Source: a virus
Length of the DNA: 37,292 bases
Reading direction: 5' to 3' (one strand)
IMG/VR virus record: IMGVR_UViG_3300010391_000096
Coordinates: 1-37,292 of that record
Shown: positions 568 to 34,006 of the stretch, one piece after another
Numbering within the stretch: position 1 is the first letter of the stretch
How the letters are laid out: every line of letters begins with the position of its first letter
Notes under the pieces: model-generated
Told to the model about the DNA's origin: nothing
The model's database searches: none
What the model saw: only the letters and a program-made list of their open reading frames with translations
Made by a program: the position numbers and the translations under genes

Positions 568-641
568 CCCGCCCGGCCCCGCGCCGACAGGGGCGGGCCG
601 GCATTATGCCCTATTCGGAACCCCGTTTGAAGGAGCTCACG

Positions 642-2628: not shown

Positions 2629-4847
2629 CCATTAGGATCCGTAAAACAAAAGCTGGGCACTTCATTGCCGGCTCGTTGCTGGCGGTGGACACCGAGACCA
2701 CCGGGCTGCGGGCCTGGCAGGGCGATTGCCCGTTCTCCATCGCCTTCTGCAACGAGGCAGGTGGAACCATCTACTTCGAGTGGCCAGTGGACCCAAAGAC
2801 GCGGCGGGTGCAACCGGACTCGGTGGAGCTTGCGAAGGTCAAGCGACTGATGGAAGACCCGGCCGTGGAGAAGGTTTTCCACAACGCGAAGTTTGACGTC
2901 CGGATGTTGGAGAACTCCTTCGGCATTCGGACGCTCGGGCGGGTCCACGACACGATGTTCGCGGCTCACGTGTGCAACACCCTAGAGGGCTCGTACGGGT
3001 TGAAGCGACTTGCCAACAAGTACCTCGATTATCCGGAGACCGACCTGTCCGAACTCAAGAAGATTGTGCAGCGTTGCCGTCGGATCGGCAAGAAGCTCGG
3101 ATGGGCGTTGGCCGAAGATCTCGAAGCGGACTACTGGATGCCAATGGCATTCCAGCGGCTCGGGCATGCTGGCTACCTACGGCAGATCGGACTGGACGAG
3201 GCGCAGGCGGAGGCCTGCAAGCGTTACTGTATCGGCGACGTGGAGCGAACCATGTTGCTCTTCGCCTTCTTCCGAGAGGCAATGGTTGGCATCCAGCAGG
3301 AGTATGACGCGGAGTCGGCCGACCTCCAGCGACACCTGACCGAATATCCCGAGGAGGCCCCGGCCTTTGCCATCAAGACCGATCAGACCCGCATGGACAT
3401 CGCCAAGACGTACGCCCGTGAGATCGAGCTTTGGCCCATCAACTACCAGATGGAGACGCGGGGCGTGCGGGTGGACCCGGTCGTCGTCGCGACGGAGACC
3501 AAGCGTTGCCATGAGGAGATCGCTAAGTGGAAGCCGGTGGTCATGAATCGGGCCTGGAAGGGCTTCGACATTGATAGCCCGCAGCAGTGCGGCAAGCTCT
3601 TCTACGGCAAGCTTCACCTGCCCATCCTGAAACGAACGGCCCGCGGTCAGCCCCAGGTGAACTTTGACGCCCTGATGCAGCACGTGGAGAATCCGGTGGT
3701 CGCGGCCTTGTTCAAGTACCGTGCCGCAGAAAAGGCGCTGAAGTCTTTCTTCCTGAAATACACCGAAAACCTCCTGCCGGACCCGCTGAACCCCGGCGGC
3801 TTTGCCCTGCACCCGGACTTCAACCAGGTCGGTCCCTGCACCGGGCGGTTCAGCTGCCGCAACCCGAACCTGCAGAACGTGGCCAATGCACTGACCACCC
3901 GTTCCAGTGAGCCCATCCAGGCCCGTACCCCCTTTGGGCCGCGGCCGGGCTTCATCTGGTACCACATCGACTACCAGCAGCTTGAGGTCCGGATCTTCGC
4001 GGACGTCTGCGAAGAGGGCTTCATGATCGAGGCCCTGACGTCGGGCCGTGACCTGCACACCGAGTGCACCAACAAGGCCTGGGGAGGCCCCGGCAACCCC
4101 GCGGCGATCCGGGCCGCGGTGCACGCACTGGAGCTTGACGCGACGGGCGATCACCGCAACCCCGCCGTGCAGGCCGCATGGAAGGAGTGGGGGTTGAAAG
4201 ACCCGCGGATCTTGAAGGATCCCGAGCGGGAACGGCTCGCGGAGGAGTGGCTCGCCGACTTTGATTTCGACATTGTAAAGGCCGAGAAGTCTCTGGAGAA
4301 GAAGACCAGCCGTGCGAAGGCGAAGATGCTGCTCTTCCTCAAGATCTTCGGTGGCGGAGCGGGGGCAGCGGCAGACCTGATCCGGTGCAGCTACGAAGAG
4401 GCAAAGCAGTTCCTAAAGGACTACGACGTAGCCTTTCCACGGATCTCGGAGTACCTGGAAACGCTCTCCGGCCAGGCAAAGGCCGATGGCTACATCGTCA
4501 ACCGGTACGGCCGTCGGATCTCGGTGACCTCAGACGCCCCGTACCGCTGCGTCAACTACATGGTCCAGGGGTCAGCCGCGGACCTGATGAAGCGGAGCAT
4601 GGTCCGGGCGCACGGCTACCTGCGGGAGAGCGGGCTGGACGCACACATGGTCCTCACCATTCACGACGAGCTCGTCTTCGAGGTTCGCAAGGAACACGCC
4701 TACAAGTCGATGCTCCGGGGGCTCGTCGAATTGATGGCAGACCACGAGGGCCATTTCCGGGTGGAGACGCCCGCTGAAATCGACAAGGTTACCGTCCGCT
4801 GGGACAAGAAGGAAAAAGTCAACCTCGTGCTGAAGGAGGCCGCATAG
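2625..4847 (+). CDS. polA: DNA polymerase, family A, with 3'-5' proofreading domain
   Basis: Replicative-type phage DNA polymerase of 740 residues. The exonuclease domain shows all three motifs: VDTETTG (D22, E24), HNAKFD (N87 to D91) and YCIGDV (Y201, D205). The polymerase domain shows motif A (HIDYQQLEVRI, D449), motif B (RAKAKMLLFLKIFGGGAG, R563 and K567 with F571 and F575) and motif C (HDE, 680-682). The two metal-binding aspartates are therefore D449 and D681. No 5'-3' exonuclease domain is present, as in T7-like enzymes. The O-helix residue that is usually tyrosine in 'YG' is F575 here. The start at 2625 overlaps the methyltransferase stop as ATGA with GAGG eight bases upstream; earlier in-frame starts lie inside the methyltransferase. 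It sits in one transcript with the primase-helicase. Confidence 0.97.
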   Translation: MTIRIRKTKAGHFIAGSLLAVDTETTGLRAWQGDCPFSIAFCNEAGGTIYFEWPVDPKTRRVQPDSVELAKVKRLMEDPAVEKVFHNAKFDVRMLENSFGIRTLGRVHDTMFAAHVCNTLEGSYGLKRLANKYLDYPETDLSELKKIVQRCRRIGKKLGWALAEDLEADYWMPMAFQRLGHAGYLRQIGLDEAQAEACKRYCIGDVERTMLLFAFFREAMVGIQQEYDAESADLQRHLTEYPEEAPAFAIKTDQTRMDIAKTYAREIELWPINYQMETRGVRVDPVVVATETKRCHEEIAKWKPVVMNRAWKGFDIDSPQQCGKLFYGKLHLPILKRTARGQPQVNFDALMQHVENPVVAALFKYRAAEKALKSFFLKYTENLLPDPLNPGGFALHPDFNQVGPCTGRFSCRNPNLQNVANALTTRSSEPIQARTPFGPRPGFIWYHIDYQQLEVRIFADVCEEGFMIEALTSGRDLHTECTNKAWGGPGNPAAIRAAVHALELDATGDHRNPAVQAAWKEWGLKDPRILKDPERERLAEEWLADFDFDIVKAEKSLEKKTSRAKAKMLLFLKIFGGGAGAAADLIRCSYEEAKQFLKDYDVAFPRISEYLETLSGQAKADGYIVNRYGRRISVTSDAPYRCVNYMVQGSAADLMKRSMVRAHGYLRESGLDAHMVLTIHDELVFEVRKEHAYKSMLRGLVELMADHEGHFRVETPAEIDKVTVRWDKKEKVNLVLKEAA

Positions 4848-5568: not shown

Positions 5569-5781
5569 ATGCCCTCAACGAAAAAAGTTAATTTCAAGGC
5601 TCGAGTCACCACAGCCATTCGAGGTGATGCCAGGGAAGAACGGAAGGAGGAGGGGCAGCTGGAGCGTTTGACGCGGGCAACAGCACTGCTCGCTGCGTGT
5701 TTGGCCCACACCAACAGCTGGACCGAGATGGAGCGTCGGTGGTTCCTGGATGGCATTGAGTACGGAAAGGACTCCTTGTGA
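5569..5781 (+). CDS. Small hypothetical protein
   Basis: This 70-residue protein has AAAAGGAG shortly before its ATG. The N-terminal half is strongly charged (KKVNFKARVTT, then DAREERKEEGQLERL), and the second half is a probable helix (TRATALLAACLAHTNSW) ending in MERRWFLDGIEYGKDSL. No motif identifies it. Its stop TGA overlaps the GTG start of the primase-helicase by four bases, so the two are translationally coupled. A role linked to replication is only suggested by position. Confidence 0.7.
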   Translation: MPSTKKVNFKARVTTAIRGDAREERKEEGQLERLTRATALLAACLAHTNSWTEMERRWFLDGIEYGKDSL

Positions 5782-7934
5782 TCGAGATCCCCAGGAAGCT
5801 CTTGCCTTTCGGGTGCCACGGCATTGAGTTCGAGGGTGAGTCGGGAACGACGCACCTTTCGGCCGACTGCCCGTTCTGTGGCAAGGCGAAGCATTTCTTC
5901 GCGGCCCGCGAGACGGGCCAGTGGAAGTGCCAATCATGCGGCGAGCAAGGCAACATCGTGACGTTCCTCGGCCGTGTCGCGGCGGAGACGCACGCCGAAA
6001 CCGCAACCATCTACTGGAGCCAGCTGGCCAAGAACCGTGGCATCCCGGCCGCGGCCTTCAAGCGGTGGAAACTGGGGTTCAACGGCCGCGAGTGGCTGAT
6101 CCCGTACTTCAGTGAGACTGGCACCGTCCGCGACATCCGCCGCTGGATCCCCGGCACCCGGCAGGTCATGTCCACGACCGGGTGCCATGTGGGGCTGTTC
6201 GGCGCGGCGGAGCTCGCGAAGGCCCCGGCCGGCGTGAAGGTCTGGGTGTGCGAGGGCGAGTGGGATGCGATCGCATTGCGGTGGGCGCTGGACGAGGCCG
6301 ATCGCAAAGACGAGATCGTCGTCGGCGTGCCGGGTGCCTCGATTTTTAAGGCAGAGTGGACCGAGTGGTTCCGAGGGAAGCACGTCCACCTGATGTACGA
6401 CAACGACGACGCGGGCGACGCCGGCTCGAAGCGCGCGGCCGCGATCCTGCGAGGTGTGACGTTCAGTCTGGAGTTCCTGTGCTGGTCGGATGCATTGCCG
6501 AAGGGCTACGACGTTAGGGACTTTGTGAAGGCTGGACTGATCGGCAAGTGGCCAGCGAAGAAAATCGTCAAGCAGCTGTGCCTCCGGTTGAAGCCCAAAC
6601 ACCGCCACGATACCGCAGCCGATGACGCTCCCGACGGCCCCACGGCCCCGGCCGGCCCGCCGATTACCTTTCCTGAATTGTTGGAGGTTTTTCGCCGATG
6701 GCTGTTGATGGATGCGGACATGGAGAACGCCCTCCGGGTCTGCCTGGCGGTGTGCCTGTCGGAGCAGCTGCCGGGCGATCCCCTCTGGTTCTATCTGGTC
6801 GGCCCGCCGGGTTCAGGCAAAACTGCGGTTCTGAACACGTTCCGAAAATCGGACAGCTGCTTGTTCCGCTCGACGCTGACTCCCGCTTCCCTGGTGTCCG
6901 GTTTCCAGCGCACCCCGGACCCGTCGTTGTTCCCGCTGATGCAGGCGAAGACCGCCATCTTCAAGGACGCCACCGAGCTCTTCAGCATCCACCCCGCAGC
7001 CCGCGAGGAGATCTGGTCCATCTTCCGTGGGGCGTTCGACGGGTACGTTTATAAGCAGTTTGGTAACGGGGTGGTCCGCGAGTACGACCCTCTCCACTTC
7101 AGCCTTTTGATGGGCGTCACACCGATCATCCATGGGGACAGCACCGCAACGCTCGGCGAGAGGTTCCTGAAATTTGAGATGGTGAAGGGGGTGGGTTTCA
7201 ATGCAGAGGAGCAAATCTGGGCTGCGATCAACAACATCTCCCGTGAGGGTCGCATGGAGGAGGAACTCACCATGGCGGTGAACCGCTTCTTGCTCCGGCG
7301 GGTGAACGTGGACCATGTGCCGGAGGTTCCGATCTGGGCAAAGCGGCGGGTGGTGGCCTTGGCGCAGTTGGTGGGTATGTTGCGAGCCCGTGTGGATCGT
7401 GAGCAATGGGGTGAACGAGAGATCAAGTATCGCCCAGCACATGAGGTCGGTACCCGACTCGCCAAGCAGTTGGTGAAATTCGCATCGATGGTCGCGGCTG
7501 TTGCGGACGAAGCCTCGCTCTCTCCAGAAAACTTTGCCTTGGTCGAACGGGTGGCCTTCGACTCCGCGATCGGATTCCATTTGGACATGGTCATGGCCTT
7601 GATGAAGTTCGGGTCCGGGGCCACTCAGGAAGAGATCGCGGAGTCCAGCCGGTTGCCACGGACCAACATACAGCGGAAGCTTGAGGATCTGTTCTTGCTT
7701 GGTATTGTGCGAAAGGAAAAGGGTCGCGGGCCGGGTCCAATCATCCAAGGTACCGCTCGGCGGGGAGCACCCCCCACAAAGTATTTCATGTGTGACCGGA
7801 TCGCGGAACTCTGGCGGGCCGCGGTCGCCTCGAACGAAGGAATGGAGTCCGCGGCCGCGCGTGCGGACGCGAACCGTCGTCGCCGACCGTGGTCGGTCGG
7901 CCCAAAGGTCAAACGGCTCGTTGCCGTCAACTAA
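5778..7934 (+). CDS. DNA primase-helicase: CHC2-type zinc finger, TOPRIM, P-loop ATPase and winged helix
   Basis: This 718-residue replication protein has four parts. The N-terminal zinc finger has C31-x2-C34 and C51-x2-C54, with CQSCGEQGN typical of CHC2 primases. The TOPRIM fold shows VCEGEWDA (catalytic E159) and YDNDDAGD (D208, D210, D211), which bind the primase metals. The ATPase part begins with Walker A VGPPGSGKT (341-349). The last 100 residues contain IAESSRLPRTNIQRKL and LFLLGIVRKEKGRGPGP, a winged-helix reader. Family knowledge gives synthesis of primers plus DNA unwinding at the fork with the upstream polymerase. The ATPase part is not the RecA-like T7 gp4 helicase type; it looks nearer to AAA+ or SF3-like helicases, but I am unsure which. 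The start is GTG, coupled to the preceding stop. Confidence 0.88.
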   Translation: MIEIPRKLLPFGCHGIEFEGESGTTHLSADCPFCGKAKHFFAARETGQWKCQSCGEQGNIVTFLGRVAAETHAETATIYWSQLAKNRGIPAAAFKRWKLGFNGREWLIPYFSETGTVRDIRRWIPGTRQVMSTTGCHVGLFGAAELAKAPAGVKVWVCEGEWDAIALRWALDEADRKDEIVVGVPGASIFKAEWTEWFRGKHVHLMYDNDDAGDAGSKRAAAILRGVTFSLEFLCWSDALPKGYDVRDFVKAGLIGKWPAKKIVKQLCLRLKPKHRHDTAADDAPDGPTAPAGPPITFPELLEVFRRWLLMDADMENALRVCLAVCLSEQLPGDPLWFYLVGPPGSGKTAVLNTFRKSDSCLFRSTLTPASLVSGFQRTPDPSLFPLMQAKTAIFKDATELFSIHPAAREEIWSIFRGAFDGYVYKQFGNGVVREYDPLHFSLLMGVTPIIHGDSTATLGERFLKFEMVKGVGFNAEEQIWAAINNISREGRMEEELTMAVNRFLLRRVNVDHVPEVPIWAKRRVVALAQLVGMLRARVDREQWGEREIKYRPAHEVGTRLAKQLVKFASMVAAVADEASLSPENFALVERVAFDSAIGFHLDMVMALMKFGSGATQEEIAESSRLPRTNIQRKLEDLFLLGIVRKEKGRGPGPIIQGTARRGAPPTKYFMCDRIAELWRAAVASNEGMESAAARADANRRRRPWSVGPKVKRLVAVN

Positions 7935-10687: not shown

Positions 10688-11275
10688 TTGAGTGCAATTC
10701 AAGTGTTCCATGCTGGCGAAACTTTTGAGGTACAGGTAGATGCTGATCTGCTCCCGGAGGTCCTGCGGCTTGGGGAGCTCTACCTGCACGGAAACCAATA
10801 CGGGAACCATCGAGCCATTCTGAAGCGGACGCACGGTCCAATGCTCTTCCTCCACCGGATGCTCGCAGCAGCGGGACCGGCGGAGGTGGTGTTCGCCAGA
10901 AACGGGGACTACCTGGACTGTCGTTTCAACAACCTCCTGATCCTCCCGCGGGCGGAGGCCTATGAGGTGATCTCCCGCAAGGTTGCAGAGAAGATCTACC
11001 GTCGCGGGCGGGGGCACCCCAGCCACGGAGAGCCGGCCCCGACCACTTTCAAGGGGGTCACCTGGCGACGGAACAGGGGGCGTGATTACATCCAATGGGC
11101 AGCACAGATCCATCTGAACAACCGTACCCTTCACCTGGGCATTTTTCCGTTCACCCCGGAGGGGGAGCGGGCCGCGGCTCGGGCATTCGACATGGGTGTG
11201 CTGGAGCATCGCCCGGCGGGGGCGTACCTGAATTTCCCCGAACAACTTTCACAGGAGATCCAGATCCAAGGCTGA
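10688..11275 (+). CDS. HNH-like/AP2 domain protein, probably nuclease-impaired
   Basis: The protein has 195 residues and a TTG start with GGAGGG six bases upstream. The middle (residues 50-83) follows the HNH layout: FLHRMLAAAG, then VVFARNGDYLDCRFNNL. In active homologues this reads 'VDHxNGDxLDNRxxNL'; here the aspartate and histidine are F69 and A70, while D74, D77 and N82 remain. The C-terminal 65 residues, from FKGVTWRRN through WAAQIHLNNRTLHLGIFP to AARAFDMG and AYLNFPE, form an AP2 DNA-binding domain. AP2-HNH proteins are known phage homing nucleases. The lost histidine suggests DNA binding without efficient cutting, perhaps a decayed homing gene or a repurposed regulator. Confidence 0.85.
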   Translation: MSAIQVFHAGETFEVQVDADLLPEVLRLGELYLHGNQYGNHRAILKRTHGPMLFLHRMLAAAGPAEVVFARNGDYLDCRFNNLLILPRAEAYEVISRKVAEKIYRRGRGHPSHGEPAPTTFKGVTWRRNRGRDYIQWAAQIHLNNRTLHLGIFPFTPEGERAAARAFDMGVLEHRPAGAYLNFPEQLSQEIQIQG

Positions 11276-18299: not shown

Positions 18300-18530
18300 A
18301 TGAAGTCCCATTCCCAAGTCGAAGGCCCCTCCGGCACCGCTCCCCGCCCGCGGCGACACCGGCCCCCGTCGGTGGTTCCAATGGCCCCGGCGAGTGCGAC
18401 CGCGACCGCGGCAGCGGCGGTGCAGACCAACCCCACACAGACCATCCAACCCCAGAAACGCTCGCTCTTCCAGACGTTGCTCGGTGAGATGATCGCGGAC
18501 GGTGAGATCACCTTCGTGGATCCCAGATAA
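18300..18530 (+). CDS. Small hypothetical protein
   Basis: The 76-residue protein starts at ATG 18300, five bases after AAGGAG. The first 55 residues are disordered-looking Pro/Ala/Thr (PSGTAPRPRRHRPPSVVPMA). The end (RSLFQTLLGEMIADGEITFV) looks like a short helix that could be a peptide ligand. Its stop overlaps the portal start by one base (TAATG), so it is coupled to portal translation; a scaffold- or portal-associated role is a guess. Confidence 0.6.
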   Translation: MKSHSQVEGPSGTAPRPRRHRPPSVVPMAPASATATAAAAVQTNPTQTIQPQKRSLFQTLLGEMIADGEITFVDPR

Positions 18531-20920
18531 TGGTGACTCAAAACGACATCCTGGACGCTTACGGCCGGCCGGCCCGCTTGGGACTGCCGTCCCGCGGGAC
18601 CAGCGACAACGGAAACGGCAAGGTCATTAGCAAGGCCTACGCCAATTTCGTGAGCGCGGTCTTCGGGGTGTCGGCGGACCCGGTGTTCCGGGCGACCGAG
18701 CCGTTTGAGAATCATGCCTGGGTTTATGCCTGTGCCATGGCGATCGCGACGAACCTGGCCCAAGCCCCGTTCCAGATCATGCGGGAGACGGAGAAGGCCT
18801 CACAAGTCCGCGTGACACGCATGAAGGCCCTGGGTCGTCCCTGGGTTGGACCCCCGGCCGGTCGCGGCCGGCGGGCGGTGGAGCGCCACATGACCCGTGC
18901 GGCCAACCCCATGCGATTCCGTGGACTCCGATCGAAGGCACTTGAGCTCGACGAGACGCACCCTCTGATGAACGTCTTCAAACGACCCAACCCCCTGATG
19001 TCGCAGGGTCAGCTGTGGCAGGGAACCTCCCTCTGGCAGACGATGCGGGGTCAGTGCTTCTGGATCCTGCTCTCGGAGGAGGGGAAGCGGATCGCCCCCG
19101 GTGACATTCCCGGCCAGATCTGGCTGGGCAACCCGGACCTCATCGAACCACTGTACAAGGAGAACCGGCTCGTGGCCTGGGACTACAGGGTGCCCCGCGG
19201 GGCCGGTTACTTCCGGGAAGGGGAACGGGTCTCCCTGCTGCCCCATGAGGTGATCCGGTTCTACCTGCTCCATCCGAGCGACCCGGCCCGTGCGATCAGC
19301 CCCCTGACCGCCGCAGCCATGGGCATTACCATGGACATGTTGGCGGGGGCACACAACAAAGCGGTGCTGGAGAACGGGGCCGACCCCGGCGGGATCCTGA
19401 TGCACAAGGAGGGCTATGACGAGGAGGAGGTTCAGAAGCAGGTTAAGCAGTTTGAGCAGCGGCACAAGGGGACTCAGAACCGCCGCAAGATCGGCTGGCT
19501 GACGGGCGGGTGGGAGTACGTGCCGACCGGCATGACGCCCGAGGACATGGAATGGTTCGAACAACGCCAGTGGGACCGGGATGAAGTGTTGGCGGTGACC
19601 CGCACCCCGAAGTCGATTCTCTCCATCACGGACGGGCTCAACTACGCAACGCAACTGAGCCAGGACTGGAACTTCTGGGACAAGAACCTCCTGCCCCAAA
19701 TCAGGTACTTCGAGGACGTCCTGGACGGGACGCTCTTTTTCACTGAGACCGACAATGTGATGGGGATGTTCGATCTGTCCGGGGTTGATGCACTGCGACA
19801 GGGCTTGAGCGAGGCCACGACCCTGGCCAAATCCCTGGCCGGCTCGGAACTGCACGTCCCACCGCGACAAGCAATGGAGATGGCGGGGCTGGAGGTCGAG
19901 CCCTACGAGGGCGATGACGTCGTCCTGGTTTCCGCTGGGTTGATGACCCTGGACGCTGTGCTGAATCCGCCGGAACCTGAGCCGCTGCCGCTGCCGCTGC
20001 CGCTGCCTGCGGTGCCCCCGCCCGGCGAGGAAGAGCTCCCGCCCGGCCTTCCGGCCTCGCGCACGCCCGCGGCCGGGAAGCCCACCCCGCCCGAGCCGTT
20101 GCCTCCGCCCGCGATGAAGGCCGCACGTGCGGCGAGTGCGAAGCGCCGCTGGAACGCCATCATCGCGAAGGTGCAGCTGCCGGCGGAACAGGCCTTCATG
20201 CAGGCCTGGCGGGCTTGGGTTCTGAAGGAGCAGCAGGAGAACCTCCGGCTCTTCGACGCGGTCGTGGCGGAGCAGCACCTGAAGTTCTGGCAACCGCTGA
20301 ACAAGGCCCTCAAGGCGGAGGCCTTCCTCCCCGACTTGGAGGCATACAGGAAGCGACTTCAGCGGCGAGTGAACCCAGTGTACGCTCAGGAGCTCGCGGG
20401 CGTTTACGAGTACACCGTAGCGGAACTCGCTGGCATGGCGGTGTTCGCACTGGACGACCCCATGATCCAGGCCGCGATCACCCGCCGCGAGAAATTCCTG
20501 GTAGGCAAGGCCCCAGCCTCTCTCCAGAAGATGCTCCGCACCTCCTTGAGCAAGGGACTCGATGCCAACGAGTCCATGGCTGAGTTGCGAGCTCGGGTGT
20601 CCCAGGCCTACCAGTACGCCGCGAGTTCCGCGAAGACGCTCCAGGTCGCCCGCACGGAGTCGGCCGGCTTCATGAACGAGGCCCGCGAGGCGATGTTCAC
20701 CGCGCAGGGTTTCGAGCGGGGTGAGTGGCTCTCCGCCGTGGATGAGCACTCCCGCGTGAACCACCTGCTTTACGGTGGGGCCGGGCCGCAAAAGCGAGGG
20801 TTCAACTACCTGACCCTTTCCGGCAACGTGGACGCGGGTGAGCTGAAATATCCGAATGACATGGACTGCACCGACGCGGGTGAGGTTGTAAACTGTCGCT
20901 GCGTCATGATCCCGGTTTAA
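18530..20920 (+). CDS. Portal protein fused to MuF-like head morphogenesis domain
   Basis: This 796-residue fusion begins with an HK97-family portal, the ring through which DNA enters. Signs are HPLMNVFKRPNPLMSQGQLW, the 'G..D.IEPLY' region, LPHEVIRFYLLHPSDPARAI and a C-terminal wing with DEVLAVTRTPKSIL. Residues 480-530 are a Pro-rich linker (PEPEPLPLPLPLPAVPPP) encoded by repeated CCGCTG units. From about 540 comes a MuF-type minor head domain: ARTESAGFMNEAREAMFTAQ, then GEWLSAVDEHSRVNHLL and the closing VNCRCVMIPV. Portal and MuF are more often separate adjacent genes. No clear ribosome site precedes the ATG; it is coupled to the upstream stop. Confidence 0.93.
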   Translation: MVTQNDILDAYGRPARLGLPSRGTSDNGNGKVISKAYANFVSAVFGVSADPVFRATEPFENHAWVYACAMAIATNLAQAPFQIMRETEKASQVRVTRMKALGRPWVGPPAGRGRRAVERHMTRAANPMRFRGLRSKALELDETHPLMNVFKRPNPLMSQGQLWQGTSLWQTMRGQCFWILLSEEGKRIAPGDIPGQIWLGNPDLIEPLYKENRLVAWDYRVPRGAGYFREGERVSLLPHEVIRFYLLHPSDPARAISPLTAAAMGITMDMLAGAHNKAVLENGADPGGILMHKEGYDEEEVQKQVKQFEQRHKGTQNRRKIGWLTGGWEYVPTGMTPEDMEWFEQRQWDRDEVLAVTRTPKSILSITDGLNYATQLSQDWNFWDKNLLPQIRYFEDVLDGTLFFTETDNVMGMFDLSGVDALRQGLSEATTLAKSLAGSELHVPPRQAMEMAGLEVEPYEGDDVVLVSAGLMTLDAVLNPPEPEPLPLPLPLPAVPPPGEEELPPGLPASRTPAAGKPTPPEPLPPPAMKAARAASAKRRWNAIIAKVQLPAEQAFMQAWRAWVLKEQQENLRLFDAVVAEQHLKFWQPLNKALKAEAFLPDLEAYRKRLQRRVNPVYAQELAGVYEYTVAELAGMAVFALDDPMIQAAITRREKFLVGKAPASLQKMLRTSLSKGLDANESMAELRARVSQAYQYAASSAKTLQVARTESAGFMNEAREAMFTAQGFERGEWLSAVDEHSRVNHLLYGGAGPQKRGFNYLTLSGNVDAGELKYPNDMDCTDAGEVVNCRCVMIPV

Positions 20921-21427: not shown

Positions 21428-22666
21428 ATGTCGGTGTTCAATGCCATCCTGTCCGCGGTTGACGAGGTGCCTCCTCCGGTTACTGATGCGCCGGAGGAGG
21501 CCCTCTTCCCGTACAGCCTGCGGGAGTTCGAGTTTTACAACCTCGATGCGGGGTCGTCCCGCTCGGCAGTGGTGAGAGGCAAATCCACCAACGTTTTCGA
21601 CGCCATCCTGAAGTTCAACCCGTACTGGGGTGATCAGCCGCGGGACGAGCAGGGCCGTTGGGCCTTCGACGGGGCGGGCGCGGGCGCGACCCCCGCGGGC
21701 ACCGCCGACCCCTCCGCCGACGATCCTTTCCCTCCAGAAAAACCAGCTGAGCCGACTGACCCCGTTGACCGGAAGATGCTTCAGGTAGAGCGGGCGGTTG
21801 CTCAAGTTGATGCCATCATCCAAAAGGCAACTGAAGCCTCCAAGGCACTTCTGGATTCATTCCAACCCCTACAAACCCAGAGAGATGAACTCTGGGAAAA
21901 ACAATTCGAGACTGTCAATAAGCTGACTGCAGCCAAGGAAGCTGGTGCCTCCCCTGAGGCAATCGCTGTCCTTCAGCAAGAATACACAGCCCGAGAGGCT
22001 GAGCTCAAAAAAATCACTGCGGAACTCGAGCCGCAATGGGAAGCCTATTCTAGAGCTAAAGAAGCAGAGAGTGCTGCTACCGAAGAAGGCAACCGCATGA
22101 TTCAGAATGCGCTTGCTGCCGACCCTTCCAGTAATCGGGGCCTGGGGGGGTCGTTCGGAAAAGAGTTGAAGCATGGCTCAGAAGCGGTGGCGTTCTTCAA
22201 TAAGGTAAATGGTTCTGATTTCTTGCGAGAGGGCAACTTCTCGGTCGGCCAATCAACGAAGAGCGAACGAGAATACTTCTCGAACGGGGCCATTTACCTG
22301 AGGAGTGTCACTTCAGCTTCGGTAATTGTTCATGAGATGGGTCACGTGCTTGAGCATTCCGATAGGGACGTCAGCCAAGAATGCCAAAGTTTTCTGGCTC
22401 GTCGGACACAGGGACTGAAGCCCGAGTCCCTGAATGCAATCAAAGGCTTGAAGGGTCGGAGTAAGGCTTTTTCTGATGATGAGGTTGGGATTAAGGATGG
22501 CTTCCGTGATCCCTATGTTGGCAAGATCTACCGCCATGAAGCAACAGAAGTGTTGTCCATGGGACTCCAATGGCTCCAACAAGAGCCCCTCCGTTTTTTC
22601 AAGGAAGACCCCGACCACTTTAAGTTTACGGTGCGGATACTGAACATGAAGAAGGGGAACAAATGA
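21428..22666 (+). CDS. HExxH zinc metallopeptidase cargo protein with capsid-linked N-terminus
   Basis: The 412-residue protein has three parts. Residues 1-80 are GC-rich and end in RDEQGRW (72-78) followed by a Gly/Ala linker. Residues 110-230 are a coiled coil (QREELW-type heptads such as AIAVLQQEYTAREAELKKI). The C-terminal domain holds VIVHEMGHVLEHSD, with zinc ligands H302 and H306 and catalytic E303. A later RHEATEVLSMG (E371 or E374) may supply the third ligand. This is a zincin peptidase of the type found as variable domains near phage capsid genes and thought to be injected or to process proteins. DNA after the linker is much poorer in GC (28/60 in two sample lines), pointing to acquisition. 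The stop overlaps the next gene. Confidence 0.8.
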   Translation: MSVFNAILSAVDEVPPPVTDAPEEALFPYSLREFEFYNLDAGSSRSAVVRGKSTNVFDAILKFNPYWGDQPRDEQGRWAFDGAGAGATPAGTADPSADDPFPPEKPAEPTDPVDRKMLQVERAVAQVDAIIQKATEASKALLDSFQPLQTQRDELWEKQFETVNKLTAAKEAGASPEAIAVLQQEYTAREAELKKITAELEPQWEAYSRAKEAESAATEEGNRMIQNALAADPSSNRGLGGSFGKELKHGSEAVAFFNKVNGSDFLREGNFSVGQSTKSEREYFSNGAIYLRSVTSASVIVHEMGHVLEHSDRDVSQECQSFLARRTQGLKPESLNAIKGLKGRSKAFSDDEVGIKDGFRDPYVGKIYRHEATEVLSMGLQWLQQEPLRFFKEDPDHFKFTVRILNMKKGNK

Positions 22667-24523: not shown

Positions 24524-25885
24524 ATGCCAGTTGACCCGAAAGACGGTGCCATGGAGAAGGAAGCCGTGAAGAGGCTTCTGGAGAACGTGGAGATCATGTC
24601 CAAGGGCTTGCCCGAGATCCGCGAGGAGCTCAAGGCCCTGCAGGCGAAGGTCAAGGAGTTCGCCGACCTCGACGTGAGCAAGGCGCTGAAGGAATTCGAG
24701 CGGACGAAGGCCTCCATGGAGCAGGTCCGGGAGGCGATCCGCAGCAGCAAGGGCGGGTTCTACATCCCCGGCTTGGAGGACGCGGGCAAGAAGTTCAGTC
24801 TGACCCGCGCGTTCATCGGGGCGAAGACCGGTGACTGGAAGGGTGCCGAACACGAGAAGGAGATCTTCGACCAGGTCCGGTCGAAGGCCTCGCACATCAT
24901 CGGCAACGACAGCGCGGCCGGGCTCTTCATCCCGGACCAGGTGATCCCCGACGTGATTGCCGCGATCTACACCCGCAGCCAGCTGATCGACCTGGCCGGC
25001 GACGGCCGGACCCGCGTCAGCGTGCTGGACGGGCTGACCGGCATCCCCGCCAAGCTCCCGAAGTTCAACGGGGGCGTCATCGCCTACTGGCTGGGTGAGG
25101 AGGACGAGTACGTCGAGTCCCTGGTCAACGTCGGCAACATGTCGCTGACGCCCAAGAAGCTCGGTATCCTGGTCCGGCTCACCGACGAGATGCGTCGCTT
25201 CCAGTCCTTCGGCTTCGAGAACCTCCTGCGGGCGGACATGACCCGCGCGGCCGCGAAGAAGATCGACTGGACCGTGCTCTACGGGAGCGGCTCGGAGAAT
25301 ATGCCCCGTGGCGTGGTCAACTGGCCGGGCGTTGGGGTCTACTCCGCCGAGAACGGAACCAGCACTCAGCCGGCCAGCCCGGCGGGTGCGGCCCTGGACT
25401 TCGACGGGCTGGACAACATGGCCGGCATCCTGGAGGACGCTGACATCGACGCCGACTCCAGCTTCGCGACCATCTCGTGCCCGAGGTTCTTCCGCCGGAT
25501 GCGTCAGCTGAAGACGGACAACTACAGCGGGCAGACCACCAACCGGCCGTACCTCATCGGGGTACCGATGCTGCCGGAGGCCCGGCTGCGCGACGTCATC
25601 GGCGAATTCGGCAAGAGCACCCAGCTGCCCACCACCAACAAGCCCGGCGCTTCGGTGGCCTGGACCAGCCCGCAGGACGTGCAGAAGTGCACGGACGTCT
25701 TCCAGGGTAACTGGGCGAACGTGCTCTTCGGTCGGTGGTCCGGCCTGGAGATCGCGGACGACGGCGGGCTCGGCAAGGGCTTCACCTCCGACCACACCTA
25801 CATCAAGGTACGGATGTACTCGGACGTCGGTTGCCGGTACGAGCAGTCGATCGTCATCTGCCCCGACGCCAAGGTCCGCGACTGA
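24524..25885 (+). CDS. Major capsid protein (HK97 fold)
   Basis: The 453-residue protein builds the head shell. The first 100 residues are a charged coiled coil (LPEIREELKALQAKVKEFAD), the HK97 delta/scaffolding domain normally removed by the prohead protease encoded just upstream. The mature part begins around IIGNDSAAGLFIPDQVIPDV. It contains MSLTPKKLGILVRLTDEMRR, the conserved 'P.k.....vtdEll' segment; the E-loop/P-domain region; and VLYGSGSENMPRGV followed by the usual 'G.PqGi..w' turn. The position after protease and before connector genes agrees. AGGAG lies eight bases before the ATG, and a short hairpin (CGGGCA/TGCCCG, 24473-24486) sits in the leader. Confidence 0.93.
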   Translation: MPVDPKDGAMEKEAVKRLLENVEIMSKGLPEIREELKALQAKVKEFADLDVSKALKEFERTKASMEQVREAIRSSKGGFYIPGLEDAGKKFSLTRAFIGAKTGDWKGAEHEKEIFDQVRSKASHIIGNDSAAGLFIPDQVIPDVIAAIYTRSQLIDLAGDGRTRVSVLDGLTGIPAKLPKFNGGVIAYWLGEEDEYVESLVNVGNMSLTPKKLGILVRLTDEMRRFQSFGFENLLRADMTRAAAKKIDWTVLYGSGSENMPRGVVNWPGVGVYSAENGTSTQPASPAGAALDFDGLDNMAGILEDADIDADSSFATISCPRFFRRMRQLKTDNYSGQTTNRPYLIGVPMLPEARLRDVIGEFGKSTQLPTTNKPGASVAWTSPQDVQKCTDVFQGNWANVLFGRWSGLEIADDGGLGKGFTSDHTYIKVRMYSDVGCRYEQSIVICPDAKVRD

Positions 25886-28915: not shown

Positions 28916-29941
28916 ATGGCCGTTGTTGGTTTTCAAGACTTCTGGGTGACCGGCTCCCGTTTCTATTTCCAGCGGGAACCTGTCTCTTCCGTCGTCCAGC
29001 CCTTCGTCGATCTCGGCGTGATCCAGGTCGCCAGCCCGACCCTGGAGATCACGAAGATCGAACTCAAGGACTCGGACGGTGGCGTGAAGCGGGTGGTGGA
29101 TCAGAAGGTCACCGAGATCAACGAGACGTACGACATCACGTGCTCGAACCTGAACGGTGACAACCTCTCGCTGCTCTTCCTGTCCGCGGCCCCGGAGGCC
29201 TTCTCCCAGTCCGCGACGCAGGTGGAGAGTTCCCCGGTGTACTCGCACCCCGGCCGTCTGGTCAAGCTGCTGGATGCGAACGGCATCCCGATCTTCGGCA
29301 TCACGTCGGTGGAAGCTGTCACGAAGGCAACGAATTACGCCCTCGTGTCCATCACGTCGTCCACGAAGACGATCGTCGTCACAGGCGACTGCTCCTCTGT
29401 GATGACCGTCGGGGTGAAGATCGCGGTGGTTGGTTCGGTTCAGCCCACCGACGACGGGATCTACACCGTTGCCTCTTCCAGCTACGGTGCGCCGAACACC
29501 AGCATCATCGTCACCGAAACCGTGGCCGTCGATGCGACCGCGGGTGGCACCGTTTCGGAGGCGTACATCCTGGACACCGACTGGGAGGTCGTTTCCCTGG
29601 AGCGTGGGATCATCCGGATGATCGATGGCGGGGCCTTTGCCACGGCCGCGAACATCGACATCACCTTCACCCCCCGCGCGATCTCAGGTGCCCGCCTGAT
29701 CAAGCCTCAGTCGTCCCGCGGCGAAATCAAGGGCAAGGGCTGGGTCATCTGGGGCCGCGAGAACAACGCATCGCAGTCCATGCGTGAGGCCGACGTCAGT
29801 ATCACGCCGAGCTCCGGCAAGCTCGACATCGAGGACTACAGCAACTTCGTCCTTCAGGCGAAGGTGCTCAGCGACGTGACCCTGGTTCAGCCGGCCGGTC
29901 GGCTGCTCAACTGGCTCGGCGACCTCCCCACGAAGTCCTGA
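28916..29941 (+). CDS. Major tail tube protein
   Basis: The 341-residue, strand-rich protein has AAAGGG before the ATG. It lies directly upstream of the tail chaperone and tape measure, the invariant place for the tube protein of siphoviruses. The pattern LEITKIELKDSDGGVKRV with NETYDITCSNLNGDNLSLLF is typical of tail tube beginnings. A middle insertion (about residues 130-210, TNYALVSITSSTKTIVVTGD) looks like an added Ig-like strand domain that may sit on the tail surface. The end (GKLDIEDYSNFVLQAKVLSD) is again core-like. Confidence 0.82.
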   Translation: MAVVGFQDFWVTGSRFYFQREPVSSVVQPFVDLGVIQVASPTLEITKIELKDSDGGVKRVVDQKVTEINETYDITCSNLNGDNLSLLFLSAAPEAFSQSATQVESSPVYSHPGRLVKLLDANGIPIFGITSVEAVTKATNYALVSITSSTKTIVVTGDCSSVMTVGVKIAVVGSVQPTDDGIYTVASSSYGAPNTSIIVTETVAVDATAGGTVSEAYILDTDWEVVSLERGIIRMIDGGAFATAANIDITFTPRAISGARLIKPQSSRGEIKGKGWVIWGRENNASQSMREADVSITPSSGKLDIEDYSNFVLQAKVLSDVTLVQPAGRLLNWLGDLPTKS

Positions 29942-30031
29942 GTGTAGGAGGTGCCTGGCAGCGGAAAGAGAACAGAAAGCGGATCGGCCGGCGACGCTGC
30001 CCGCCGGGCGACCGCTTAAGGAGACAAGCCT

Positions 30032-30622
30032 TTGGCCAGTCAACTCCAGAAAACCGGACCCTCACCCGAGAAGGTCGCTGCACAGATGCGGCAGCTTTAT
30101 CCGGGCCGTCCGGTCCCGTTGCAGTGCGGGCTCTCCGTGACGGTGTACCCGATTGGGTATCGCCATCTCAAGAAGTTCTCGGGCCTGATCGGTCGCGGAC
30201 TGGCAATGCTGGCGGACCAAGCCGGCAGTTTGTCCGGGGCTGAGGACGGTGTGCGGGCTCGTGTGGTCATGCAGTCGTTGCTCCCGCTGGTCCTTGCCGA
30301 TGGGTTGGAGCTCCTCGGTGAGTGCGTGGACACGAAGCTTGATGACCTCCCTCACTGGGAGATCGCCCCGCTCGCAGAAGCGTGGGTGTTGGAATCGTTC
30401 GGGCAGGAAAACAAGTACCGCCCTTGGTTGCAGGCGATCGAGAACACGGTCTCCAACTTCACAGGAAAGCCCTTCTCGATCTCGGAGACTCTCTCCAAAC
30501 TCTCGTCGCCTGCGGCCACCGACTCAACGACATCCTCCACCACCGCCAGCTCGGTTGTCCCTACGGAGGCTGGACCCTCCCTCAGTTCATCTTCTGGAGT
30601 CAGCGAGCCCGGCGGCACCTGA
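30032..30622 (+). CDS. Tail assembly chaperone, short form (gpG-like)
   Basis: The 196-residue protein has a TTG start eight bases after AAGGAG. It precedes the tape measure gene and coats that protein during tail assembly. Up to about residue 145 it is folded (LSVTVYPIGYRHLKKFSGLI, then ECVDTKLDDLPHWEIAPLAE). Then it turns into a Ser/Thr-rich low-complexity tail (AATDSTTSSTTASSVVPTEA). At 30464-30469 the sequence GGAAAG, read GGA-AAG, allows a -1 slip to the frame of the downstream extension, as in lambda G and GT. Confidence 0.85.
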   Translation: MASQLQKTGPSPEKVAAQMRQLYPGRPVPLQCGLSVTVYPIGYRHLKKFSGLIGRGLAMLADQAGSLSGAEDGVRARVVMQSLLPLVLADGLELLGECVDTKLDDLPHWEIAPLAEAWVLESFGQENKYRPWLQAIENTVSNFTGKPFSISETLSKLSSPAATDSTTSSTTASSVVPTEAGPSLSSSSGVSEPGGT

Positions 30623-30738
30623 AGCGGTTTGAGGCAGCGATGATCACCGGGGTGAACGTGGCGGTTGGGGCCTTGATCGACGAAAAAGCCCGGACCGCCC
30701 TGAAGGATCTGCGGAAGGAGCAAGAAGACGATGGCTGA
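30469..30738 (+). CDS. T extension of the tail chaperone, made by -1 frameshift (gpGT-like)
   Basis: This frame lacks its own ribosome site but codes for a sensible domain: ALLDLGDSLQTLVACGHRLN, then PYGGWTLPQFIFWSQRARRH and VAVGALIDEKARTALKDLRK. 'GWTLPQFIFW' resembles the T part of other tail chaperones. A -1 shift after GGA-AAG joins residue 146 of the short form to this frame, giving about 235 residues. The long form is expected at a few percent and links the chaperone to tail tube subunits, by analogy with lambda. The stop overlaps the tape measure start. Confidence 0.75.
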   Translation, partial: ALLDLGDSLQTLVACGHRLNDILHHRQLGCPYGGWTLPQFIFWSQRARRHLKRFEAAMITGVNVAVGALIDEKARTALKDLRKEQEDDG

Positions 30739-33700
30739 GACTTCCGTAACCATCACCGCAACCCTGAAGGACGTGGTTACTGCGCCCGCCAAGGCCATCC
30801 AAGGTGCCCTTGGCGGGGTGAAGGGCGTATTGGATGGGCTCAGCAGTGCCTTGGGACCGTTCTCCAACAAGCTGACGCAGTTGGTCTCAGCATTCCTTTC
30901 TTTCGAGGGCATCAAGAAGGCGATGGCTTGGGGCCGCGAAGCGGAAGAGTCCATGCGGAAGCTGCAGATCGCGGCACATGGAAACGTCGCGGAATTCGGG
31001 CGGTTGCGGGATGCTGCTGAAAAGCTCGCGGCACAGACCACCTGGTCCGACGATGAGATCGCGAAAGTCGAGGCCTTGGGCATTCAGTTTGGTTTCGCCA
31101 GGCGGCAGATCCAGGATTTCACGGTCTCCGTTCTCGGGCTGGCTGCGACCACTGGGGAACCGGTGGAGGGCATTGCCCGCCAACTCCGCATGCTAGCCCT
31201 TTCGGACGCGGGGGCTGCACGAGGAAGTCTGAAGGCTCTCGGGGTGCAGGTTCTGATGAACAAGGACGGGCTGGTGGACCTGGACGCAACCCTCGCTCGA
31301 ACGGCCCGCGATTTCTTCATCTTCGCTCAGGCCGCTGCGAAGAGTCCCTTCGGGCGGTTGACCCGCGAATGGAACCGATTCCAGGACGCGATCGAGCCGT
31401 TGGGTTTGGCGCTGGCGGAGCTTGCTAATCGGTTCCTCCCGCAATTGGTGGATGCGGGGCTGCGGGTCGTGGAGGTGCTAAGCTCGCCTGAGGTGCAGGG
31501 CATTCTGACAGTGGTCACGGACCTGGTGGCTCGGTTCACGATCTGGCTCCCGCTGGTGTTTGCAATCACGGCCGGGATGATGGCCCTGGGTTTCGTCATC
31601 ACCGCCGTCACGACGGTCGTCGGGGCCGCGGTAACGGTGATCGGGGGGTTGGCCAGTCTGATTGGGGGACTTCCGATCATCATTGCCGCGGCGGTGGTGG
31701 CCATTTCCGGGATCGTGATCAGCATTGAAACCGACTTCGATCGCCTCTCCGAAGGTTTCGCTACGATCGTTACAGGGATTGGGTTGGGCACCGCTTCCAT
31801 CGGTGACTTGTTCCGGTTCATCTGGAACACGGTGAAGATCACTTGGAACCGGGTGCGAACCGACTTCATCCTTCCGCTGGAGATCTTTGTCAAGTGGGCC
31901 TTCAAGATTGCGATGGCGCTGAGTGAATTCGTTTCCTCTTCCATCATTGCGGGCTTCCTCAGCATCAAGGACACCTTCACCTCTGTCTTCGGTTGGATCG
32001 CGGACAAATTCGTTCAGATCTTCGGAGGGATCGCCCAGTTCCTTGGGACGGTATTTGGTAAGGTTTTCGGTTGGATCGCTGGCCAGGTGAAGGCCCTGGT
32101 TGTGGACATCAGCAAACTGGCCGGGCAGTTTGCGGACAACTTCCAGGAAGAGCTCAGAGCGGAAGCCGCGAAGCCGACGGGCAACCCGATCCTTGACGCA
32201 GCACAGGAGGCCCAAGCAAAGTCCTTCCAGCAGTTGACCGACCTGGTGACGACAAACCCCTGGGAGGCGATGCCGGAGATCAAGGCCCAGATCGAAGACG
32301 AGACGGTGGCACTGGAAAGGCAGAATGATGAGCTCGTGAAAAACGTCAAGGAACGGAACGCGCAAGCTCTCGCCGAAAAGGCTTCACGGGAAGCCCGCGG
32401 CCCCGGCGGGGAGGAACTGGATGCTGCTCTGCGCAAGTTGAACATCGAACGGATCAAGGCCCTGGATGTGCAGTTGGGCGAATTCCGCGAGCGGGAAGCG
32501 AAGCGAACGTCCCTCCTGGTGGCGGACATCGAGCTCACCGCCGTCAAGCAACTCGCCCAGAAAAAGCTTCTGACAGCTGAAGAGTACGAGGAGCGGCTTC
32601 GGGATCTGATGTTCCAGGAGACGGCCCGCGAGAAGGCGGGTCTGCTGACAAAGCTTGCCAACCTGGAAACGGAACGTAAAGCCCGCGAGGCTCTTTCCGG
32701 ACCGGAGGCCGACGTCGTTGACATCCTTCAGGAACAGATCAAGACCCGTGAGAAGCTGGAGGATCTGCTGGACAAGGAGCTCGACACGGAGAAGGAGCTC
32801 GTCCGGACGCTCGCTCAGTACCGCGAGGAACTCCGGCTCTTCGCTATCGAGAAGCAACAGTTTGTGGACGACCTTGCTCAGCGGTCTGCGAAGGCACTTG
32901 GAAAGCAGCAGCTGGCGGACATCCGTGCCTTCACCGCGCAGCAGCAGAAGGAAATGACCGACGCCATCGAGCGATTCGGGCCGGAAATCGCCGACCAGAT
33001 GCAGGCAATTCTGGACCTGGAAACGGCTCGGTTCCGGGGCATCTCCGTGCTTCAGGAGCTCGGGCGAGAGGAAGCGATTTATCGTGAGACGTTGGAGCGG
33101 ACGAACGCCATGCACGAGCAGGGCATCCTTACGCTTTCGGAAAGGAACCGGGCGATTGAAGAGGCAACCGCCAGTTACGTTCTTTCGGTTCAGGTTGCCA
33201 TCACCAACATCGAAGATCTTGCCCAAAGCAACGACGAGCTTGCTGCCAGCCTTCAGCCTGTGCTTGAGAAGTTGCAGCTGCTCCGGGCGGAACTCGACAG
33301 GCAGCGGGACACATGGGCCTCCTTCCAGGGTTCCTTCCTGGCGGGTATGCTGGAGGTGAGCGGCCGGATGAACGAGCTTGCGGAGCTCGGTCGCGAGGTT
33401 GGACGTGCGCTGGCGGAGGGACTTTCGAGCGGTATCGCCTCCGGAGTGCAGGCCATTGCCTCCGGAGCGGAGTCCGCAAGCGTCGCCTTCCGTAAGATGG
33501 CACAGTCCGTGATCCAGGACATCGCCCGGATCATGATCCAGTGGGCCGTTATGCGGGCGATCACCGGACTGCTCGGGGGCTTCACCGCAGGGGGCGGGGC
33601 CGTGGGCACCGCCGCAGCCGGAAGCTTTGCGGGTGGCGGACTGATTCCAGGAAGGGAAACTCCCGGCGACTCGTTACTGATTGCTGCCCGGCCACATGAA

Positions 33701-34006
33701 TACATCGTTCGGCCGGAAGCGGTACGGCGGTACGGACTGGGCTTCTTCAATGCCCTCAACGCCATGCTGCTCCCACGGGAGCTCTTCGTGGGGCTGGGCT
33801 CGGGTGTGGGTCGGCATGCCGGTGTGGCCTTCGCTGAGGGCGGGCAGGTCGGTTCTGTGGCCGCGGGCGCGGGCGGGGCGGGCGTTTCGCGGGCGGTGTT
33901 GGTGGCCAACGAGGAGGGCTTCGACAAGCTCCTGGCCGGTGGAGGGAATGCCATGCTGCGTTGGCTGTCGGCCAACCGGTCAGCCATCAGAGGAGCCATT
34001 GGATGA
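30731..34006 (+). CDS. Tape measure protein
   Basis: The 1091-residue protein sets tail length and is ejected ahead of the DNA. The N-terminus (VTITATLKDVVTAPAKAIQG) and early helices fit the family. Residues about 270-335 are strongly hydrophobic (LVFAITAGMMALGFVITAVT, then GLPIIIAAAVVAISGIVISI), the membrane-inserting part. Residues 480-880 are long charged coiled coils. The end has the usual 'GGG.IPG..TPGDSLLIAARPHEYIVRPEAVRRYG' signature region (about 968-1010). With roughly 1.5 angstrom of tail per residue known for the family, the tail would be about 160 nm. AAGGAG precedes the ATG. Confidence 0.95.
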   Translation: MAETSVTITATLKDVVTAPAKAIQGALGGVKGVLDGLSSALGPFSNKLTQLVSAFLSFEGIKKAMAWGREAEESMRKLQIAAHGNVAEFGRLRDAAEKLAAQTTWSDDEIAKVEALGIQFGFARRQIQDFTVSVLGLAATTGEPVEGIARQLRMLALSDAGAARGSLKALGVQVLMNKDGLVDLDATLARTARDFFIFAQAAAKSPFGRLTREWNRFQDAIEPLGLALAELANRFLPQLVDAGLRVVEVLSSPEVQGILTVVTDLVARFTIWLPLVFAITAGMMALGFVITAVTTVVGAAVTVIGGLASLIGGLPIIIAAAVVAISGIVISIETDFDRLSEGFATIVTGIGLGTASIGDLFRFIWNTVKITWNRVRTDFILPLEIFVKWAFKIAMALSEFVSSSIIAGFLSIKDTFTSVFGWIADKFVQIFGGIAQFLGTVFGKVFGWIAGQVKALVVDISKLAGQFADNFQEELRAEAAKPTGNPILDAAQEAQAKSFQQLTDLVTTNPWEAMPEIKAQIEDETVALERQNDELVKNVKERNAQALAEKASREARGPGGEELDAALRKLNIERIKALDVQLGEFREREAKRTSLLVADIELTAVKQLAQKKLLTAEEYEERLRDLMFQETAREKAGLLTKLANLETERKAREALSGPEADVVDILQEQIKTREKLEDLLDKELDTEKELVRTLAQYREELRLFAIEKQQFVDDLAQRSAKALGKQQLADIRAFTAQQQKEMTDAIERFGPEIADQMQAILDLETARFRGISVLQELGREEAIYRETLERTNAMHEQGILTLSERNRAIEEATASYVLSVQVAITNIEDLAQSNDELAASLQPVLEKLQLLRAELDRQRDTWASFQGSFLAGMLEVSGRMNELAELGREVGRALAEGLSSGIASGVQAIASGAESASVAFRKMAQSVIQDIARIMIQWAVMRAITGLLGGFTAGGGAVGTAAAGSFAGGGLIPGRETPGDSLLIAARPHEYIVRPEAVRRYGLGFFNALNAMLLPRELFVGLGSGVGRHAGVAFAEGGQVGSVAAGAGGAGVSRAVLVANEEGFDKLLAGGGNAMLRWLSANRSAIRGAIG

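What the first reader, a model, noticed from the sequence alone, without database searches (positions are those of the whole stretch)
30464..30738. Programmed -1 frameshift in the tail chaperone at GGAAAG
The short form ends in a Ser/Thr-rich tail, while the -1 frame from 30469 gives a clean T-like domain with GWTLPQFIFW. GGA-AAG at 30464-30469 differs from lambda's slippery GGGAAAG in only the first base (A instead of G), so P-site re-pairing is imperfect but A-site AAG to AAA is good.
Basis: partly seen in the sequence, partly recalled or inferred. Interest (0 to 1): 0.65.

Follow-up and report, generated by a model that had tools for sequence, protein, structure and literature searches.

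The report
Phage tail-chaperone frameshift at CCCTTGG
A tailed virus of bacteria makes a long version of a tail-building helper protein by having ribosomes slip back one base, but the slip most likely happens at an unusual seven-base site about 40 bases before the place first proposed, a site that distant relatives either keep letter for letter or replace with a textbook one.

Summary
Between major tail protein and tape measure lie a tail-assembly-chaperone ORF (G, 30032-30622) and a T domain in the -1 frame. In 26 of 26 related records T is in the -1 frame of G. GGAAAG (30464-30469) is not conserved and has no significant structure downstream. The evidence places the slip about 42 nt upstream, at C CCT TGG (30421-30427, zero frame Arg-Pro-Trp). 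That heptamer is in 18 of 26 records; 7 others have a textbook XXXYYYZ heptamer 12-15 nt further upstream, 1 has neither, none has both in the range scanned. At this column proline is CCT in 19 of 23, against 26 of 132 at other proline columns. The -1 frame has no stop from the Trp codon onward in 26 of 26, synonymous constraint rises just there, and a Shine-Dalgarno-like stretch moves with the slip site. In the window a 9-bp stem starts 8 nt after CCCTTGG. Best reading: lambda-like G/GT programmed -1 frameshifting with a non-canonical slippery site. No experiment shows the product.

The parts
28916..29941 (+). Major tail protein gene, upstream neighbour
   Evidence: phrog_807 major tail protein with Ig-like domain, E 1.2e-12
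30018..30023 (+). AAGGAG ribosome-binding-like sequence before the TTG start at 30032
   Evidence: Read from sequence; not tested
30032..30622 (+). G: short form of the tail assembly chaperone, 196 aa
   Evidence: ORF; 10 of 25 family members match phrog_1442 tail assembly chaperone at E<=0.1, best 3.5e-6, the window itself does not; AF2 model pLDDT 89.6
30401..30409 (+). Weak Shine-Dalgarno-like stretch GGGCAGGAA, 11 nt before the heptamer
   Evidence: Best 8-mer duplex energy -6.0 in the window; family-wide enrichment at this distance, p 0.0025
30421..30427 (+). Proposed slippery heptamer C CCT TGG; zero frame CCT TGG, after -1 slip CCC TTG
   Evidence: 18 of 26 records
30436..30444 (+). 5' arm of a perfect 9-bp stem, 8 nt after the heptamer
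   Evidence: Fold z -2.84, 0 of 200 shuffles as stable; arms complementary
30473..30481 (+). 3' arm of the same stem
30463..30469 (+).
   Evidence: judged not the slip site
30424..30738 (+). -1 frame part of GT: 104 residues from TTG 30424 (linker of about 18 residues, then T domain)
   Evidence: GT would be 131 + 104 = 235 aa
30731..34006 (+). Tape measure protein gene, downstream neighbour
   Evidence: phrog_339 E 3.2e-15; Tape_meas_lam_C E 3.5e-5

Best explanation
The locus is a G/GT tail-assembly-chaperone gene pair expressed by programmed -1 ribosomal frameshifting. Most ribosomes read through to make G. Some slip back one base at C CCU UGG (30421-30427): the P-site tRNA-Pro moves from CCU to CCC, where pairing is at least as good, and the A site then takes UUG (Leu) instead of UGG (Trp), giving ...KYRP-LVAGDR... 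and the 235-aa GT. A weak Shine-Dalgarno-like stretch upstream and a 9-bp stem 8 nt downstream are the likely stimulators. The G part would bind the tape measure and T the major tail protein, as in lambda. Shown here: -1 phase in all relatives, the location of the boundary, conservation of the heptamer, its replacement by canonical heptamers. Inferred: that slippage occurs, P-site-led slippage, which tRNA, efficiency, and protein roles.
For: T is in the -1 frame in 26 of 26 records. C CCT TGG in 18 of 26; canonical XXXYYYZ with P codon at W-15 (6 records) or W-18 (L045) in 7; neither in L057; both in none within W-24..W, Fisher p 1.7e-5 on 25 records. Proline codon there CCT in 19 of 23 against 26 of 132 at seven other proline columns, p 9e-9; C CCT TGG in 17 of 22 against 6 of 75 other Pro-Trp pairs in the same loci, p 5e-10. 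CCC or CCT would leave both frames' residues unchanged (Pro; Leu), so the T is a nucleotide-level constraint. -1 frame stops: 0 of 390 codons from W to W+44 against 89 of 3093 upstream; nearest upstream stops at W-13 (L018), W-19 (L052), W-22 (L004, L045, L059). Excess third-position conservation begins at W-6/W-3 (z 7.0, 6.1 on 24 records) and 8 of 14 codons from W+3 to W+42 are at p<=0.01, against 2 of 15 upstream. Shine-Dalgarno-like energy beats a synonymous null at W-26..-18 in CCCTTGG records (p 0.0025) and at W-41..-33 in the others (p 0.0175). Stem in window z -2.84.
Against: No product has been seen. The A-site re-pairing UGG to UUG has a middle mismatch, so classical two-tRNA slippage does not fit. 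The window's own Shine-Dalgarno-like stretch is weak (-6.0). A conserved downstream structure is not a family-wide feature: mean z after the heptamer is about as in flanking windows. L057 has neither site. L094 has C CCT TGG and also T TTT TTA with its P codon at W-27, just outside the scanned range. CCT is somewhat favoured before Trp anyway (23 of 75 other Pro-Trp pairs). Well-supported tree branches force only 1 switch between site types, although the best tree needs 5.
Confidence: 0.85

Rival explanations
1. One reading: -1 slip at A GGA AAG (30463-30469), P-site Gly imperfectly re-pairing to AGG and A-site Lys to AAA.
For: The heptamer is in phase and its A-site shift AAG to AAA is good; it lies just before the conserved T block.
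Against: GGA AAG at the aligned pair in 1 of 26 records; stop-free -1 frame and raised synonymous constraint begin about 13 codons upstream; no significant structure follows it and it sits in the loop of the stem that follows CCCTTGG.
Confidence: 0.06
2. T is made separately: the ribosome starts afresh at the -1 frame codon TTG inside CCCTTGG, helped by the upstream Shine-Dalgarno-like stretch; no fusion is needed.
For: Because Trp is TGG the -1 frame always reads NTG there, and TTG is a possible start codon (read); a Shine-Dalgarno-like stretch lies upstream.
Against: CCA TGG, which would give ATG, is seen in 0 of 26 records, and 3 records give CTG; the base before the Pro codon is C in all 18 CCT TGG records without a canonical site, which slippage needs and initiation does not; spacing to the TTG is about 14 nt, long for initiation (general knowledge); records with canonical slippery heptamers would be unexplained.
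Confidence: 0.04
3. C CCT TGG is conserved for another reason (RNA structure or protein-level constraint) and the slip is at some unrecognised site between W-13 and W+9.
For: The stop boundary leaves a stretch of about 20 nt open; L057 shows that neither recognised site is strictly required.
Against: Protein constraint in either frame does not fix the T or the preceding C; mutual exclusion with canonical heptamers at nearly the same place is what one slip site per gene predicts.
Confidence: 0.05

Closest known systems
Phage lambda gpG/gpGT programmed -1 frameshift
   Same: Gene order (major tail protein, G, T in -1 frame, tape measure) and tail-assembly-chaperone type of G protein.
   Different: Slippery site is not G GGA AAG but C CCT TGG; no recognisable sequence similarity was found to a named lambda-type family. 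Lambda facts from passages of PMC5009743, the finding itself and recall.
E. coli dnaX -1 frameshift (A AAA AAG, Shine-Dalgarno-like stimulator, stem-loop)
   Same: Shine-Dalgarno-like stretch about 10 nt before the slip site and, in the window, a stem 8 nt after it.
   Different: Different gene and different heptamer; relatives L023 and L086 do carry A AAA AAG. dnaX site and stem-loop from passages of PMC5009743; the 10-nt spacing is recalled.
PRFect hypothetical 'threetwotwo' slippery motif (commonest CCCGGAA)
   Same: C CCT TGG has the three-two-two letter pattern in phase.
   Different: In CCCGGAA the A-site change can be read as G:U pairing; in CCCTTGG it is a middle U-C mismatch. Passages of PMC10885494 seen; the supplementary figure defining the motif not seen.
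Canonical XXXYYYZ heptamers in seven relatives of this family (A AAA AAG, G GGA AAA, C CCA AAA, C CCA AAC)
   Same: Same gene, same -1 shift, position 12-15 nt upstream.
   Different: Two-tRNA slippage possible there, not at C CCT TGG.

Membership tests
lambda-like G/GT tail assembly chaperone frameshift pair | Two overlapping ORFs between major tail protein and tape measure protein | tested here: met
lambda-like G/GT tail assembly chaperone frameshift pair | Second ORF out of frame with the first, phase conserved in relatives | tested here: met
   -1 in 26 of 26 records
lambda-like G/GT tail assembly chaperone frameshift pair | First protein is a tail assembly chaperone | tested here: inconclusive
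   10 of 25 family members match phrog_1442 (best 3.5e-6), window member none; Foldseek viral hits include tail assembly chaperones (Bacillus phage BMBtp14, probability 0.99, E 0.011) but none at E<=0.001; HK97 chaperone 2ob9 Z 6.3, not above unrelated rows
lambda-like G/GT tail assembly chaperone frameshift pair | Both G and GT are made, in an unequal ratio | not testable with these tools
   needs protein data
lambda-like G/GT tail assembly chaperone frameshift pair | T binds the major tail protein | not testable with these tools
   no functional family match for T: phrog_14432 of unknown function in 5 of 23, best 0.0013
canonical XXXYYYZ two-tRNA slippage site | In-phase XXXYYYZ in the possible slip region | tested here: not met
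   none in the window from 30346 on; present in 7 of 26 records
PRFect 'threetwotwo' class | In-phase three-two-two letter pattern | tested here: met
   CCC TT GG at 30421-30427; definition inferred from the name and the example CCCGGAA

The most novel reading that the evidence does not exclude
C CCU UGG is a true programmed -1 slippery site that works by slippage of the P-site tRNA-Pro alone, with no useful A-site re-pairing, and it interchanges in evolution with canonical heptamers 12-15 nt upstream, taking its Shine-Dalgarno-like stimulator with it. Such sites would be missed by XXXYYYZ-based searches and would explain tail-chaperone frameshifts for which no slippery site is known.
Probability: 0.6. 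Interest if true: 0.65.

Novelty: new variant of a known kind. Interest (0 to 1): 0.55.

Why it matters
Tail-chaperone frameshifting is widespread in tailed phages, but many annotated overlaps lack the textbook heptamer (stated in PMC10885494, passages read). Here a family gives a natural experiment: the same gene with either C CCT TGG or a canonical heptamer, nearly exclusive of each other, at two places 12-15 nt apart. That makes an open question, whether -1 programmed slippage can run on the P-site tRNA alone, directly testable with matched natural sites, and gives a pattern to add to predictors.

Tried and rejected
Rejected: slip at GGAAAG (see rivals); slip in the conserved CTCTCCAAG block at the start of T (poor re-pairing; L012's zero-frame stop lies before its T motif); a family-wide downstream hairpin (mean z not distinct from flanks; only L024, L083 and L085 share a 9/9 paired stem 4 nt after the heptamer).

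Led nowhere: tblastn of G from the window, L028, L044, L057, L052 against 50,697 phage records, no match, and of the major tail protein, none; the capsid protein finds only distant records, all 86 under 60% identity, 23-28% in the 25 listed. First scan with G in viral contigs found none. Profile of G in 385 genomes of one class and 77 of one phylum found only the two known loci. Pfam has no match for G beyond two chance-level ones. PDB fold search found nothing at E<=0.001; T domain fold search in viral models found no named tail function. A first tree used wrong tail-protein ORFs for L004 and L090 and was replaced. Literature: CCCUUGG or CCCTTGG with 'frameshift', 'programmed frameshift' or 'tail assembly chaperone' gave no phage paper; only open-licence PMC papers are searched.

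Dropped before counts: duplicate loci of the same contigs; L029 (near-copy of L028) in nonredundant counts, L029 and L051. Loci with a tail protein but no G/T found: L017, L046, L049, L058, L091; L017, L058 and L091 end at or inside the tail protein gene, L046 ends 130 nt after its last tail-protein match, and L049 has an unrelated ORF there.

Full report
What is there. The window is one virus record of 37,292 bases. Its structural genes run portal (18530-20920), major capsid (24524-25885), major tail protein (28916-29941) and tape measure (30731-34006). Between the last two lie the short ORF 30032-30622 and a -1 frame open from 30346 to 30738.

Relatives. Direct searches with G found nothing. 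Searches with the tail and capsid proteins gave loci in viral contigs and two bacterial genomes. HMMs of G and T then found both parts in 26 distinct records: window, L002, L004, L012, L018, L020, L023, L024, L025, L028, L029, L044, L045, L050, L051, L052, L054, L057, L059, L083, L085, L086, L090, L094, L097, L098. T is in the -1 frame of G in all 26. The T block reads roughly DLGDxLQxLVxxGHxxxDILxxxQxGxPYxGWSxPQ.

Where the slip is. I scored every in-phase heptamer between the conserved Ser-Phe..Trp region and the T block (13 records) and then tabulated all 26. W below means the first base of the Trp codon (window 30425). C CCT TGG, spanning W-4..W+2, is in 18 of 26. Seven records carry XXXYYYZ instead: L023 and L086 A AAA AAG, L025 C CCA AAA, L044, L052 and L059 G GGA AAA, L045 C CCA AAC; the P codon is at W-15 in six and W-18 in L045. 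L057 has neither. On 25 records (L029 left out) none has both within W-24..W (Fisher p 1.7e-5). L094 has T TTT TTA just outside that range. XXXYYYZ occurs at 8 of 225 codons in W-24..W against 7 of 2739 upstream in G.

The T in CCT is not explained by protein. Pro in the zero frame and Leu in the -1 frame would both survive CCC. Yet CCT is used in 19 of 23 prolines at this column against 26 of 132 at seven other proline columns of the same genes. Other Pro-Trp pairs in the same loci use CCT in 23 of 75 and are C CCT TGG in 6 of 75. The product of each record's own CCT usage over the 18 records is 10^-12.9 (near-copies inflate this). End branches in the tree have a median of 0.86 changes per column, so common descent alone is unlikely to explain an unchanged third base.

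Three boundary signs agree. First, -1 frame stops: none in 390 codons from W to W+44 in 26 records, against 89 in 3093 codons upstream, and 34 in the +1 frame over the same 390 codons (totals summed by me). Nearest upstream -1 stops are W-13 (L018), W-19 (L052), W-22 (L004, L045, L059), so the slip is after these. Second, third-position conservation above a codon-usage null rises at W-6 and W-3 and stays up: 8 of 14 codons from W+3 to W+42 at p<=0.01 against 2 of 15 upstream, 24 records. This is the mark of two overlapping reading frames starting at W, about 13 codons before GGAAAG. Third, Shine-Dalgarno-like pairing is strongest just before the slip in each group: W-26..-18 in CCCTTGG records (mean -7.65, synonymous null -6.57, p 0.0025) and W-41..-33 in the others (-7.23, null -5.99, p 0.0175); the groups differ at both places (p 0.025 and 0.007) (17 and 8 records). 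The windows for these tests were chosen after seeing the profile, so the p values are somewhat flattering. The window's own stretch is weak (-6.0).

Structure. In the window 30436-30444 pairs with 30473-30481, a perfect 9-bp stem 8 nt after the heptamer, z -2.84. Downstream of GGAAAG the z is -0.36, and GGAAAG lies in the loop of that stem. L024, L083 and L085 share another 9-bp stem 4 nt after the heptamer, with one pair changed on both sides. Across the family the region is not unusually structured.

Proteins. Ten of 25 G proteins match phrog_1442, tail assembly chaperone. The G model is confident (pLDDT 89.6) and its viral fold matches include several tail assembly chaperones, none at E<=0.001. 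In the model the Trp lies near the start of a helix (126-144); slipping at CCT TGG would cut that helix and replace it with a linker before T. The T model is confident (92.4) but has no named functional relative.

Mechanism. tRNA-Pro in the P site can move from CCU to CCC; with a GGG anticodon the new pairing is the better one (general knowledge). The A-site pair UGG/UUG does not re-pair. Slippage of peptidyl-tRNA alone, with the next tRNA entering in the new frame, has been argued for a dnaX variant (passage of PMC5009743). A tRNA-Pro isoacceptor is described as naturally prone to frameshifts (title and abstract start of PMC4519876 in the listing). These support plausibility only.

Evolution. 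On a tree of G, T and tail protein pieces (25 records) the two site types need 5 changes (bootstrap 5-6), but strongly supported branches force only 1, so repeated switching is likely and not proven.

Compared with what is known. It works like lambda G/GT (passage of PMC5009743). Xu et al. 2004 on conserved tail frameshifts was not read and is known here only through citations and recall. PRFect reports that XXXYYYZ is not present in most of its annotated frameshift overlaps and proposes other letter patterns including 'threetwotwo' (passages of PMC10885494), so the idea of alternative motifs is in print; this specific heptamer was not found in print.

Noticed in passing
L046 6244-7404 and 7444-8556: Two tandem ORFs both match the major tail protein HMM (E 3.4e-69 and 7.7e-104), as if the tail protein gene were duplicated; the contig ends before G.
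   Followed up: no
L049 9806-10480: Downstream of the tail protein, where G is expected, lies an unrelated open ORF; G is not found before the contig ends.
   Followed up: partly
window 606-1706, 1678-2628, 2463-4847, 5778-7934: Replication block: Thy1 thymidylate synthase (E 3.9e-20), N6/N4 DNA methylase (2.2e-51), family A DNA polymerase with exonuclease domain (8.3e-65), and a Toprim primase-helicase-like protein.
   Followed up: partly
window 21428-22666: Protein with a HEMGH motif and a weak zinc peptidase match (E 0.0032, below cut-off), between portal and capsid genes.
   Followed up: no
window 18530-20920: Portal ORF of 796 aa whose C-terminal third matches head-morphogenesis families, apparently a natural portal / head-morphogenesis fusion.
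   Followed up: no
window 30484-30496; similar in L004, L020, L023, L028, L044: GGAGA-nnn-TCTCC mini-hairpin at the start of the T block, recurring in several records; may follow from the two overlapping codes rather than act itself (read by eye, window fold).
   Followed up: partly
window 10688-11275: Weak HNH and AP2 matches (E 0.009 and 0.008), possibly a homing-endonuclease-like gene.
   Followed up: no
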